From NCBI GenBank assembly GCA_944386225.1, contig CALXAH010000005.1, positions 62,001 through 126,000 of the forward strand: a stretch of DNA of 64,000 bases. Direction: 5' to 3'. Below are positions 835-7,289 of this stretch, piece by piece. Position 1 is the first letter of the stretch, and each line of letters opens with the position of its first letter. The notes beneath the pieces are model-generated. The model was not told where the DNA came from and did not search any database. It worked only from the letters and a program-made list of their open reading frames with translations. The stretch comes from an uncultured Gemmiger sp. (GTDB taxonomy: Bacteria > Bacillota > Clostridia > Oscillospirales > Ruminococcaceae). Made by a program: the position numbers and the translations under genes.

Positions 835-880
835 TGGTGGAGATAAGCGGGATCGAACCGCTGACCTCTTGAATGCCATT
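835..880 (-). repeat. 46-bp direct repeat: tRNA-Ala 3' half, distal attachment site of the island
   Basis: These 46 bases are identical to 7244-7289, the 3' part of the tRNA-Ala gene from the anticodon-loop edge through CCA. Identity stops abruptly on both sides. This is the pattern left by a tyrosine recombinase using the anticodon-loop/T-arm half of a tRNA as attB. The fragment lacks the 5' half, so it is not a functional tRNA. Confidence 0.9.
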
Positions 881-1148
881 TTATGGGACTATTAGTACAA
901 ACGGAAAAACTGGAAAATACCGCAGAATCAAGCCATTTTCGGGCTCTTTCGTTTCTATATTTTAGTCGCAAAACATGCCGATTCAATACCAGTTCATTAC
1001 GACCTTTGGATGGACAAATTTTGCAGCGCACTTGATACAGAACTCACTGCTTGATCGGTACACACCCGCACCTCTCAAAGCTGAAGAAATCAAGGTTTGC
1101 GCGCCCCTGCCCCATAAAAAGCAGAGGGTATTTGTGAGGCCGGAGCGG
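881..1148. other. AT-rich island end with no recognisable gene
   Basis: This stretch follows the distal attachment site, where an integrase gene would often be expected. Its short open frames (the longest about 76 codons, running into the repeat region) resemble nothing I recognise and have no convincing ribosome binding site. I see no coding sequence here. It may be decayed element DNA. Confidence 0.5.
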
Positions 1149-1380
1149 GCAAAATCGGTGGGTATTTATGGCAAGCCCGTACCGCTCGGCTGCCATCCGG
1201 AGTAGTGGCGGATTTTGCCAGAAATCAGTGGGTATCGCGGTGCCCTTATCCCGTGAACCTATTGTAACAAATCACCACTAAAATGTGAAGCAAAATCGGT
1301 GGGTATTTCTGGCGGTTTTGCACCTACCGATTTGTACTGTTTTAGAGCGTTTTTATACCAGCCCTACCCACCGATTTTTT
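1149..1380. repeat. Cluster of repeated AAAATCGGTGGGTAT motifs
   Basis: A near-identical 24-bp unit (GCAAAATCGGTGGGTATTT plus ATGGC or CTGGC) occurs at 1149-1172 and 1290-1313. A diverged copy (GAAATCAGTGGGTAT) lies at 1221-1235, and an inverted copy (TACCCACCGATTTTTT) at 1365-1380. A weaker inverted copy, CACCTACCGATTTG, starts at 1321. The cluster lies directly upstream of the HipA-like remnant. It could be operator or iteron DNA of the former toxin or element; the function is unknown. Confidence 0.75.
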
Positions 1381-1485
1381 ATGGTTCCTTAAATGTTATC
1401 CAGCCGGACGTACGCATTCTTGCGAGTGCCCTCAGAGAACGGGTGGGAGTGGTATGCCCGCCAGCCAAATCTTGCCGAAAGGGTA

Positions 1486-1940
1486 TGCTGAATAGAGCCG
1501 AGCAAACCGCACAGCTTACCGGTCTTTCCCGTTTTGGTCAGTATTTGACCCTGCTCTTTGAAGCAGATATGCTGGCCGGCAACGAGAACCGTCACCTGAA
1601 CAACATCGCCGTGCTGCGTCGGGGCGAAGGTTTTGACTACTGTCCCCTCTTTGATTTCGGGGCGGGGCTGCTTTCCAATACGCGGGGCTACCAGCTGGAC
1701 ATTGAGCCCCGCGCCCACCTGCGGCTGCACGCGCTTCCGCTGGGCACTACTTTCGGCCGACAGGTCCAGGCCGCCCGGGCTGTTTACTGCCCTCAGCTGG
1801 AGTGGACCTTTACCGCCGATGACATCGCCAACGCGCTGGCCAGACCGCTGGAGTTTTATGCCCAGCGGGACCGGGCCGATATTGCCGACCGGGTAACCGT
1901 ATGTATTCAGATGCAGGCCAATAAACAGTTACTAAGATGA
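1486..1940 (+). pseudogene. HipA-like Ser/Thr kinase remnant, C-terminal half only
   Basis: The translation of this stretch contains DMLAGNENRHLNN followed by PLFDFGAGLL. These match the catalytic-loop Asn/Asp region and the metal-binding D-x-G of HipA-family kinases. HipA proteins phosphorylate targets such as glutamyl-tRNA synthetase and act as toxins or sensors. The open frame runs back to 1299, but residues before about 1486 do not resemble the family and no N-terminal lobe or nucleotide-binding loop is present. The domain is therefore roughly half length. No HipB-type antitoxin is adjacent. I read it as a decayed fragment carried by the island. A truncated but expressed protein cannot be excluded. 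Confidence 0.65.
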
Positions 1941-1960
1941 GTGCAAAACGCACAAAAGAG

Positions 1961-2015
1961 CGGAACCTGTGAGTAGCCGTCAAACGGCCACACACAGGTT
2001 CCGTACTGTTTTTCC
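1961..2015 (+). terminator. Terminator between the HipA remnant and the mcr genes
   Basis: An 11-bp perfect stem (CGGAACCTGTG at 1961-1971 with CACAGGTTCCG at 1993-2003) is followed by GTACTGTTTTTCC. The T-run fits plus-strand termination after the HipA remnant. On the minus strand it could also end the mcrC-side transcript. Confidence 0.75.
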
Positions 2016-2025
2016 GCTTTACTGT

Positions 2026-2343
2026 TCAGGTGCCCTGATCCATAGCGTGGAAAATCCCATACCAGTACACTTGATTTCTGGTCAAAACTGTGGCCTCCTG
2101 TGATACCGCTTCACCCCGGCACCGCCTTTCATACAAGAGGCGCATGGGGGTACACTCCTCCGGATTCAACCATCGCGTACCTTTGATTTTACTGGAGGGC
2201 GTATGCGTTTTGCTGTTGGCCACATACAGATTTCCACCTTCGGCCCAAACGTGAAACCATCGCCCCTGCCCTCTTGTTGGGCAGGTACAGACATCACGCG
2301 GATTCTTTTGAAACTCCGAAAGGATTGTTCTCCACAATTCCAC
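2026..2343 (-). CDS. Uncharacterised 105-aa protein downstream of mcrC
   Basis: The GTG start at 2343 is preceded by AAGGAAAG at a suitable distance. The protein has no signal peptide or membrane segment and is mixed charged and aromatic (segments NPRDVCTCPTRGQGRWFHVW and NQVYWYGIF). It starts 72 bases after the mcrC stop on the same strand, so it is probably the last gene of an mcrB-mcrC-orf operon. I do not recognise the family. Its place in the island suggests an accessory to the restriction system or an independent cargo gene, but the sequence shows no catalytic motif. The two cysteines in CTC are not arranged as a zinc ribbon. Confidence 0.5.
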   Translation of the reverse strand: MELWRTILSEFQKNPRDVCTCPTRGQGRWFHVWAEGGNLYVANSKTHTPSSKIKGTRWLNPEECTPMRLLYERRCRGEAVSQEATVLTRNQVYWYGIFHAMDQGT

Positions 2344-2415
2344 TTGACCACTTTCCTTATCTCAAATTTGCCAAGAAAATTAGCTGCAAGCCCGCTATCG
2401 GTGGCTTCTTCTTGT

Positions 2416-5979: not shown

Positions 5980-6847
5980 TTATATAGTCTCTTCGCTGTT
6001 CCTTTTCATCTTGTGGATAGGTACTGTGTATATATTTCTTGTACGTCGATATCCGGTTGCATATACCGTTTTATGAGAATTTAATTGTTCCTTATGACGC
6101 TCTGGAACAAGATCCAATACTTTGTCCTTATCGAAAGGGATGTCTTTTTCTACGATATCTTTAAGTGAAACGCTTCTTTTTGACGGTTTTTCTGTTTTCC
6201 ACCATATCCATCCTGGTAACTCATGTCCCAACTTTTCAGCCGCACTATTATGCAGCCAGCAAGGGCCTTCGCCAATCAAGTTCTCTGGAATGAGACTATC
6301 ATCCTGTACGCAAATGATAAAAAACTCGAGGTCTTGATTGTGGCACAAAATGAGAAGCATTAAGAAGAATTGCCCCGCATTTGTATCCTCTTTCCACAAG
6401 AGCGGTATGCAATATGCGGTAATTATTTCCGCCATTTGTTGAAAGGAGGCCTGCGACATTTTCTAGAAGGAGAACTTTAGGTCTCTTTACCATTTCATCT
6501 AAAACCCGCAACCATTCCCAAACCAACCCACTTCGAGCAGCATGAATTCCTCCAATTGAGCCAGCTAACGACAAATCCTGGCAAGGGAAACTTGCCCAAG
6601 AAAGATGAGCGAAGGGGAGGTTGGAACCGTTAACATTTTTAATATCATCAAGCAAGAAATTCTTTGATCCAAAATTGGCTTCATAAACAGCAGCCTTTTG
6701 TTTGCTGATGTCATTCGCCCACACAGGTTCAAACATTCCTTGTAGACCGTAAGCGACCAACCCGCTCCCCGCAAAAAACTCATGCATTGTCCATGGCGCA
6801 GAAAGCAAAATGTTATCGTGATTTTTACATAGTTTTTTGGGGGACAT
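5980..6847 (-). pseudogene. DNA (cytosine-5) methyltransferase, frameshifted and C-terminally truncated
   Basis: The first frame (6847 down to 6299) shows the m5C-methyltransferase motifs: FAGSGLVAYGL (SAM site), SFPCQDLSLAG (catalytic Cys of PCQ), LLLENVAGLL (ENV) and VPQSRPRVF. After PRVF the frame is lost in a six-A run (plus strand 6319-6324). The continuation IICVQDDSLIPENL is in the second frame, which runs to a stop at 5980. Removing one base restores a continuous protein of ~289 residues. It ends soon after GYRRTRN, about where the target-recognition domain begins, so motifs IX and X are missing. Two lesions suggest an inactive enzyme; slippage at the A-run could repair the first but not the second. 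The start overlaps the stop of the HTH gene (TAATG). Confidence 0.85.
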
Positions 6848-7029
6848 TACTTGTTCCTCCTGTAAGCCGTCTTGCTGTTCGTAGGTTTATTTGTGTTTTC
6901 TGGAATTATCCAAATCCGGCTCATACGTGATGCTCCAGCGATTCGATTTTCTTTACAAAGAATCTGAACTTGACGAGGGGTGACGCCCCACTTTTCGGCA
7001 GCCTCTTGTGCCGTCATATAACCATTCAT
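6847..7029 (-). CDS. Small helix-turn-helix protein coupled to the methyltransferase
   Basis: The 60-aa basic protein has a MerR/excisionase-like winged HTH (MTAQEAAEKWGVTPRQVQIL, then IAGASRMSRIWIIP). GAGGA lies upstream of the ATG at 7029. Its TAA shares one base with the methyltransferase ATG, so the two were built as a coupled unit. Such short HTH proteins often accompany DNA methyltransferases in Firmicutes, where they may control expression of the modification gene. A role as excisionase is also possible given its place next to the attachment site, but no integrase is present. It is the first gene of the island's minus-strand transcript. Confidence 0.7.
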   Translation of the reverse strand: MNGYMTAQEAAEKWGVTPRQVQILCKENRIAGASRMSRIWIIPENTNKPTNSKTAYRRNK

Positions 7030-7070
7030 TTGAAATTCCTCAAATTTAGTATATATAGTAACACACTATT

Positions 7071-7099
7071 ATTATATTCGCCTAAACGAAATCAGACAA
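7071..7099 (-). promoter_or_regulatory. Sigma-A-type promoter of the island defence operon
   Basis: On the minus strand TTGTCT (7099-7094) and TATAAT (7076-7071) are separated by 17 bp, about 40 bases upstream of the HTH start at 7029. It would drive the HTH and methyltransferase genes and perhaps mcrBC. Confidence 0.7.
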
Positions 7100-7127
7100 T
7101 CCCATAACATGCCATTTTATAGAATTA

Positions 7128-7154
7128 GGGATGGTTTCTTGCGAAAACCATCCC
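7128..7154. repeat. Hairpin GGGATGGTTT/AAACCATCCC inside the island
   Basis: Perfect 10-bp arms with a 7-base loop lie between the tRNA terminator and the HTH promoter. There is no T-tract. It could be an integrase arm or excision site, or a second transcription barrier. Confidence 0.55.
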
Positions 7155-7193
7155 TTGCTAAACCGGCGTACAAATTATTAATCTGTATAAACA

Positions 7194-7237
7194 ACAAATC
7201 CGAACCCATCGCCAATCGGCACAAGGTTCGGATTTGT
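7194..7237 (-). terminator. Terminator after tRNA-Ala, supplied by the island
   Basis: AAATCCGAACC (7196-7206) pairs with GGTTCGGATTT (7225-7235), immediately 3' of the CCA end on the minus strand. Its sequence differs from the hairpin at 804-833, as expected if the element brought its own tRNA 3' end and terminator. Confidence 0.7.
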
Positions 7238-7243
7238 TTGTTG

Positions 7244-7289
7244 TGGTGGAGATAAGCGGGATCGAACCGCTGACCTCTTGAATGCCATT
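7244..7289 (-). repeat. 46-bp direct repeat, proximal attachment site within tRNA-Ala
   Basis: Identical to 835-880. The repeat begins at the anticodon loop and ends at CCA, so a crossover here leaves a working tRNA. The two copies together delimit the island. Confidence 0.9.

What the first reader, a model, noticed from the sequence alone, without database searches (positions are those of the whole stretch)
835..7289. 6.4-kb defence island in tRNA-Ala, bounded by perfect 46-bp repeats
Seen directly: 835-880 is identical to 7244-7289, the tRNA-Ala half from anticodon loop to CCA, and different terminator hairpins flank the two copies. Known: tyrosine recombinases use this tRNA half as attB. 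Inferred: an AT-richer element with mcrBC, a methyltransferase and HTH gene inserted here and restored the tRNA.
Basis: partly seen in the sequence, partly recalled or inferred. Interest (0 to 1): 0.8.

Follow-up and report, generated by a model that had tools for sequence, protein, structure and literature searches.

The report
Integrase-less defence island in tRNA-Ala
A 6.4-kb block of antiviral genes sits at the end of a tRNA gene in a gut bacterium; it belongs to a family of tRNA-inserting mobile elements but lacks the insertion enzymes that a related element in the same genome still carries.

Summary
Bases 835-880 equal 7244-7289 (46 of 46), positions 31-76 of an intact tRNA-Ala(GGC) at 7244-7319, minus strand. 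Different hairpins follow the two copies; the DNA between has 47% G+C against 59-62% around it.

The left end (46-bp copy plus about 1.05 kb) recurs at three other loci: contig C7 of the same genome, genome G138, and Gemmiger sp. An50 (= G200). In An50 a 19.55-kb element of this family has clean empty sites in two sister species. The same genome holds a recombinase-bearing relative (C44, probably joined to C7).

Corrections: this copy has no recombinase found and a different right end. The methyltransferase is a broken relic. mcrBC has its motifs and is followed by a small gene (2026-2343) that also follows mcrC at the two other loci with a nearly full-length copy. No held relative shows this exact locus empty; tRNA-Ala loci in the genus are reshuffled.

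The parts
804..833 (-). hairpin terminator (T3), read as the tRNA's original terminator, displaced by the insertion
   Evidence: fold; G001 has a very similar hairpin after the same flanking gene; by analogy with the displaced terminators in G138 and G200
835..880 (-). displaced 46-bp copy of tRNA-Ala positions 31-76 (far-end attachment site)
881..1390 (.). conserved left end of the element family, read as non-coding, with direct repeats at 1149-1172 and 1290-1313 and an inverse copy at 1358-1378
   Evidence: 92-98% identical in C7, G138 and G200, apart from 8 to 10 gap columns; repeats
1515..1919 (+). C-terminal relic of a HipA-like gene, kept at this end in the family
   Evidence: weak PF07804 match (E 0.014, below cut-off); 86-88% identity among elements; alignment with indels
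2026..2343 (-). 105-aa protein of unknown function, co-directional downstream of mcrC
   Evidence: nearly full-length copies at three places in 396 genomes, each just downstream of an mcrC
2416..3738 (-). mcrC nuclease subunit, PD-DxK-type residues present
   Evidence: PF10117, E 9.5e-53; motif
3719..5818 (-). mcrB-like GTPase subunit: Walker A, Walker B and NxxD (N572-D575) present; first ~275 residues match no Pfam family at E 0.1
5980..6847 (-). relic of a C5-cytosine methyltransferase: two frames (6299-6847 and 5980-6459), similarity ends near 6034, motifs IX and X absent
6847..7029 (-). 60-aa helix-turn-helix protein upstream of the methyltransferase relic
   Evidence: PF12728, E 2.1e-5, below the curated cut-off
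7109..7120 (+). second copy of the 12-mer that spans the left-end junction at 873-884
   Evidence: 2 matches in 64 kb, none in 100 shuffles
7204..7236 (-). hairpin terminator (T1) now following the intact tRNA, read as brought by an element
   Evidence: the same or a very similar hairpin beside tRNA-Ala in C50, G001, G002 and G003
7244..7319 (-). intact tRNA-Ala(GGC); 7244-7289 is the near attachment copy

Best explanation
It is a genomic island in the 3' half of tRNA-Ala(GGC). It belongs to a family of modular, tyrosine-recombinase-type integrative elements of Gemmiger-like Oscillospiraceae, and this copy lacks the recombinases. Shown for the family (best in G200): an element enters at the 46-bp tRNA 3' half, leaves an intact tRNA followed by its own terminator, and leaves the old terminator and a 46-bp copy at its far end. 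Its far end is a conserved 1.05-kb segment. A recombinase module sits by the tRNA, and restriction systems differ in between. Inferred for the window: the same history, followed by loss or replacement of the recombinase side. The right end carries another terminator (T1) and a relic of a Type II methyltransferase, probably through recombination between tRNA-Ala islands. The island now works as a resident defence locus: McrB/McrC (perhaps with the small downstream protein) would cut incoming DNA with modified cytosine. It could move again only through recombinases supplied in trans, for which the C44 module of the same genome is the candidate.
For: Exact 46-bp repeat at the tRNA 3' half. Left end 835 to about 1920 recurs at 88-92% in own C7, G138 C19 and An50/G200 C6, each time starting with the 46-bp copy behind a terminator that is different in G138 and G200 and similar in C7. 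G200 element of 19,551 bp between copies, empty in G199 and G027 (joined flanks, one alignment over 2400 of 2400 bases, 90-91%). G138: 19,731 bp between copies; terminator and right flank recur at intact tRNA-Ala loci of G199 and G200. Recombinase module collinear in C44, G138 and G200. C44 and C7 match the G200 element in order (8.9, 3.7 and 1.1 kb at 92-94%), so a recombinase-bearing relative most likely spans both contigs. The orthologous tRNA locus in G001 (right-flank gene 88% identical) holds a remnant of the recombinase module. McrB and McrC motifs present.
Against: No held locus has the window's two flanks joined through one tRNA. In G002 the left-flank gene has no tRNA beside it. The right end has T1 rather than the family's T2, and no recombinase-module sequence was found in the window. 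T1 also stands at the G003 locus that shares the right flank, without an island, so T1 could be native there. Flank pairs differ between G000 and G001 as if tRNA-Ala copies had recombined, so the two ends of this island may not have arrived together. The C44-C7 join is not seen in the assembly, and about 1.6 kb of C7 between HsdR and the left end does not match G200.
Confidence: 0.8

Rival explanations
1. The island is a chimera made by homologous recombination between tRNA-Ala islands: its left end comes from a recombinase-type element and its right end (T1 side) from another lineage such as the one carrying the GmrSD-like gene. It never moved as a unit. (This overlaps with the best explanation: the left end would still belong to the family.)
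For: T1 occurs beside tRNA-Ala at C50, G001 and G002 with a 98-99%-identical GmrSD-like gene, and without it in G003 and the window. Flank pairs are exchanged between G000 (window, C44) and G001 (L019, L020) at the tRNA copies.
Against: Both ends still carry perfect 46-bp copies. Loss of the recombinase side by internal replacement gives the same picture.
Confidence: 0.4
2. mcrBC and the methyltransferase form one restriction-modification system of the LlaJI / PcaRCI kind, in which McrBC-like subunits cut unmodified DNA and the methyltransferase protects.
For: Such a system exists (PcaRCI, PMC8989522, abstract and one results section read; LlaJI is recalled). McrBC genes are frequently linked to methyltransferases (PMC2614495, passages read).
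Against: The methyltransferase is in two frames and lacks motifs IX and X. None of the 11 distinct loci with relatives of this McrBC that I examined has a match to it at E 1e-3 (several are cut by contig ends; 2 of the 8 relative genomes, G177 and G195, and 275 of 276 plasmid records were not examined). Its intact relative in G154 lies beside a Type II endonuclease model match instead.
Confidence: 0.08
3. The 46-bp copy is only a leftover of tRNA-Ala duplication or rearrangement, with no insertion event.
For: tRNA-Ala(GGC) is multicopy and its flanks are reshuffled; tandem copies exist in G027 and G199.
Against: The copy ends where the conserved element left end begins, at four loci with different flanks, one of which (G200) has a fully shown empty site and one (G138) a partly shown one.
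Confidence: 0.03

Closest known systems
tRNA-gene genomic islands as catalogued in Islander (PMC4383910, abstract and outline read)
   Same: intact tRNA gene at one end, displaced 3' fragment at the other, acquired cargo between
   Different: Islander requires an integrase inside the island; none was found in this copy
Phages whose records end in the tRNA-Ala 3' half: Haemophilus phage Aaphi23 and Aggregatibacter phage S1249
   Same: the same tRNA-Ala 3' segment (45-48 bases, 92-93% identical) lies at the end of their records
   Different: phages of other hosts; no other part of the left end matched. That the record end is an attachment site is my inference
McrBC Type IV restriction (E. coli, T. 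gammatolerans)
   Same: GTPase signature NxxD, PD-DxK-type nuclease, overlapping mcrB-mcrC genes
   Different: first ~275 McrB residues match no Pfam family at E 0.1 and, among the 60 of 70 PDB rows shown, only one chance-level row (E 0.52); a small gene follows mcrC
Tn554-like and 'recombinase in trio' elements with several tyrosine recombinases (recalled; search listings only)
   Same: several tyrosine recombinase genes in one module
   Different: here the module also has a 502-aa protein with a weak NucS-like C-terminal match and a 127-aa protein, and it lies at tRNA 3' ends; membership not tested

Membership tests
tRNA-gene genomic island | intact tRNA gene plus displaced 3' fragment at the other end, in direct orientation | tested here: met
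tRNA-gene genomic island | uninterrupted tRNA locus in relatives without the island (empty site) at this exact locus | tested here: inconclusive
   no held locus spans both flanks; shown for relative G200, and by terminator and right flank only for G138
tRNA-gene genomic island | integrase encoded within the island | tested here: not met
   no recombinase among the seven island ORFs given to family searches and no tblastn match at E 1e-4 of the family's recombinases anywhere in the window
recombinase-module tRNA-Ala elements (C44/C7, G138, G200) | conserved 1.05-kb far end beginning at the 46-bp copy | tested here: met
recombinase-module tRNA-Ala elements (C44/C7, G138, G200) | recombinase module and T2 terminator beside the tRNA | tested here: not met
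   T1 in place of T2 and no module
McrBC Type IV restriction | McrB GTPase motifs and McrC nuclease motif | tested here: met
McrBC Type IV restriction | cuts only DNA with modified cytosine | not testable with these tools
   needs an assay; the N-terminal reader domain was not identified (model mean pLDDT 50.8)
LlaJI / PcaRCI-type McrBC restriction-modification | functional linked C5-methyltransferase | tested here: not met
   relic here; 0 of 11 examined loci of relatives have it

The most novel reading that the evidence does not exclude
The island is a non-autonomous satellite. It keeps the cis-acting far end (881-1390) and both attachment copies and is moved in trans by the recombinase module of its relative in the same genome, so that small restriction cargos travel without their own integrase. 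Its operon mcrB-mcrC-orf105 defines a McrBC variant with a third, uncharacterised component.
Probability: 0.25. Interest if true: 0.55.

Novelty: new member of a known kind. Interest (0 to 1): 0.4.

Why it matters
It shows in one genome how restriction cargo may be exchanged on tRNA-Ala elements of gut Oscillospiraceae: a recombinase-bearing element, an integrase-less island with the same cis end, and relics. The close pairs (G200 filled, G199 and G027 empty; a recombinase 99.75% identical between two genera) make movement testable. The small gene after mcrC is a concrete lead for a third McrBC component. The tRNA-island principle itself is textbook.

Tried and rejected
One restriction-modification system (mcrBC + methyltransferase): rejected, see rivals. 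T1 as the tRNA's native terminator: T1 also lies beside the tRNA in G003 at the locus sharing the right flank, without this island, so a native T1 is not excluded. I prefer element-borne because T1 also accompanies a 98-99%-identical GmrSD-like gene at three other tRNA-Ala loci. The 12-mer at 7109 as a second attachment site: by eye, the bases either side do not match the tRNA or the left end convincingly, so left open. AlphaFold model of McrB from 5 sequences: mean pLDDT 50.8, too poor for a fold search, so none was run. Six literature searches listed no title or abstract opening describing these elements; only the top rows were shown (15 of 17, 4 of 4, 10 of 414, 12 of 461, 8 of 41, 10 of 213), from an open-access library. 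The phage collection had 10 records with a match and none covering 80% of the left end; two unannotated faecal 'Bacteriophage sp.' records matched 13-15% of it, in the HipA-like relic.

Weaknesses in counts: genome searches drew samples of the family (148, 197, 197, 197 and 396 genomes) and only 4 genomes of the genus including G000. Names such as V-ATPase, aspS, HsdM, mnmA and serine recombinase are my reading of translations, not searches.
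Full report
Observation. The window holds one tRNA gene, tRNA-Ala(GGC), at 7244-7319 on the minus strand. Its positions 31-76 (7244-7289) are repeated exactly at 835-880. On the tRNA strand each copy is followed by a stable hairpin, of different sequence. The enclosed 881-7243 has 46.7% G+C against 61.5% and 59.2% on the two sides. A perfect 46-bp match at a tRNA end is not chance.

Anatomy. From the far (left) end: 46-bp copy; about 510 bp read as non-coding, with short direct and inverted repeats; a HipA-like C-terminal relic (about 1515-1919); then, on the minus strand in order of transcription, HTH gene (7029-6847), methyltransferase relic (6847 to about 6034), mcrB (5818-3719), mcrC (3738-2416) and a 105-aa gene (2343-2026). 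McrB has GAPGTGKT, FIIDEINR and GTMNDID; McrC has a PD...DAK stretch. The N572-D575 spacing is the standard NxxD signature described in PMC11090510 (passages read). The methyltransferase matches DNA_methylase in its first frame (E 1.5e-34). An intact 373-aa relative from G154 aligns to it in two frames, 84% then 66% identical, and the match stops at 6034, before motifs IX and X. In G154 that enzyme sits beside a Type II endonuclease model match; it was the only other match at E 1e-25 in 197 genomes.

The family. The left end was sought in 148 genomes of the family: 5 had any match at E 1e-20, but only G000 (two places) and G138 (one) had nearly the full left end, at 91% or more; the other matches covered only the HipA-like part. 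An exact-pattern scan of named genomes found one more, Gemmiger sp. An50, which is G200. At the four places the shared sequence begins with the 46-bp copy; the terminator before it differs in G138 and G200 (31% and 42% identity to the window's) and is similar in own C7 (93%). The part 881-1390 is 92-98% identical and the HipA relic 86-88%, which suggests that the non-coding part is what is kept (my inference).

Empty and filled sites. In G200 the element runs from 6270 to 25866 of contig C6 (19,551 bp between copies). Joining its flanks through one 46-bp copy gives 2400 bases that align end to end to G199 (90.8%) and G027 (90.1%). Both of these have two tandem tRNA-Ala genes there, as G200 has two tRNA-Ala copies on that side. 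In G138 the two copies are 19,731 bp apart. The terminator behind its far copy is nearly the one that follows an intact tRNA-Ala in G199 and G200 (81 bases including the 46, 98.8% and 97.5%), and the right flank continues there at 84-87%; its left flank beyond the terminator does not match, so that empty site is only partly shown. The tRNA in filled G138 and G200, in own C44 and in G001 L020 is followed by another hairpin, T2, together with all or part of the recombinase module. T2 is therefore read as brought by the element. T2 also stands beside a tRNA-Ala of G002 (L023) where no module match was found.

The recombinase module. Next to T2 lie an 80-aa protein, a 571-aa protein with a weak phage-integrase match (E 2.5e-5, below cut-off), a 552-aa protein with only a weak recombinase match (E 0.0035), a 127-aa protein, a 502-aa protein with a weak NucS-like C-terminal match, and a clear 406-aa tyrosine recombinase (PF00589, E 2.1e-14). 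It is collinear at 90-97% in own C44, G138 and G200; the 406-aa protein is 99.75% identical between own C44 and G200. Of 197 family genomes, 6 had a match to the 571-aa protein at E 1e-40, in 12 places. Related genes lie beside tRNA-Pro(GGG) in own C23 (its 571-aa relative has one stop) and, without a match to the 406-aa gene, in G138 C2. Cargo differs: Type I in G200 and own C7 (HsdR by Pfam in C7; collinear in G200), Type III with a DrmD-like helicase in G138. Own C44 5177-14125 and C7 1-3722 and 5304-6415 match the G200 element in order at 92-94%. Unmatched are about 4.4 kb of G200 in the hsdS region, between the two contigs, and about 1.5 kb between HsdR and the left end. Own C44 and C7 are thus most likely one recombinase-bearing island split by assembly; the join itself is not seen.

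The window copy. It has the family's left end, no recombinase match and another terminator, T1. T1 occurs beside tRNA-Ala in own C50, G001 and G002 next to a 98-99%-identical GmrSD-like gene, and in G003 without it. At the orthologous tRNA of G001 (right-flank desulfoferrodoxin gene 88% identical) there is a truncated recombinase module with T2. Behind the left-flank gene and a T3-like hairpin of G001 stands what reads as a serine-recombinase sequence, after eight tRNA-like bases. So the two flanks of the window lie at different tRNA-Ala copies in G001, and in G002 the left-flank gene has no tRNA beside it. Insertion plus later recombination between tRNA-Ala copies explains this best. The empty site of this very locus was not found in any held sequence.

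Function. The relatives of this McrBC pair that I examined have no C5-methyltransferase match: 0 of 11 distinct loci, although several are cut by contig ends and not all known relatives were examined. An annotated E. faecium plasmid has hsdM, hsdS and hsdR directly upstream of a 43%-identical McrB. Two viral-contig loci have ORFs that read as Type I genes, and one genome (G058) an ORF that reads as an adenine methyltransferase; these are my readings. In E. coli a cytosine methyltransferase (M.PvuII) entering an McrBC cell leads to cell death, and methyltransferases linked to McrBC are expected not to create its targets (PMC2614495, passages read). The relic state of this one fits that rule, but it may equally be ordinary decay. 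The 105-aa gene was found nearly full-length at 3 places in a search of 396 genomes (window, own C23, G027), each directly downstream of an mcrC; 3 further matches were fragments. The C23 McrC is a different one (PF10117; no match to the window McrC at E 1e-15). No relative was found in viral contigs, and one unannotated Subdoligranulum variabile plasmid record has a 36%-identical partial match. But the McrBC relatives at 64% or less that could be read on the downstream side (for example G106, G178, G058) gave no match to it, so it is not universal. I infer an accessory component of some McrBC operons; its role is unknown.

Verdict. Observation confirmed. It is an ordinary kind of object with a useful and testable set of relatives.

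Noticed in passing
window 2026-2343; L139 4888-5190; L067 7837-8118: A 105-aa protein without family match lies directly downstream of mcrC at the three places where a nearly full-length copy was found, beside two different McrBC types; more distant McrBC relatives gave no match to it.
   Followed up: partly
window 7109-7120: The 12-mer ATGCCATTTTAT across the left junction (873-884) recurs once, about 124 bp inside the right end, and nowhere else in the window.
   Followed up: partly
L029 7591-9285, L019 10464-12158, L024 8412-10106: A GmrSD-like gene, 98-99% identical in three genomes, sits against T1 and tRNA-Ala in different chromosomal settings: another mobile cargo at the same tRNA.
   Followed up: partly
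L098 2841-11739 and L139: A related recombinase module next to tRNA-Pro(GGG) in the same genome; on the same contig lie Type III genes, a second McrBC and the 105-aa gene; no tRNA-Pro fragment was found in C23:1-38000 outside the gene itself.
   Followed up: partly
L028 1-5256 and L019 12368-17623: The flank upstream of tRNA-Ala in own C44 is 99.7% identical to G001 over 5.26 kb, while the flanks of the window shared with G001 are 88-95% identical: recent exchange of this segment is possible.
   Followed up: no
L124 11637-15079: In the G200 element the hsdS region has several partial specificity-like genes in both orientations around a 327-aa recombinase-like ORF, as in invertible Type I loci (my reading).
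   Followed up: no
L067 4412-6514: The closest McrB relative (G027, 87%) is broken into two ORFs after residue 143.
   Followed up: no
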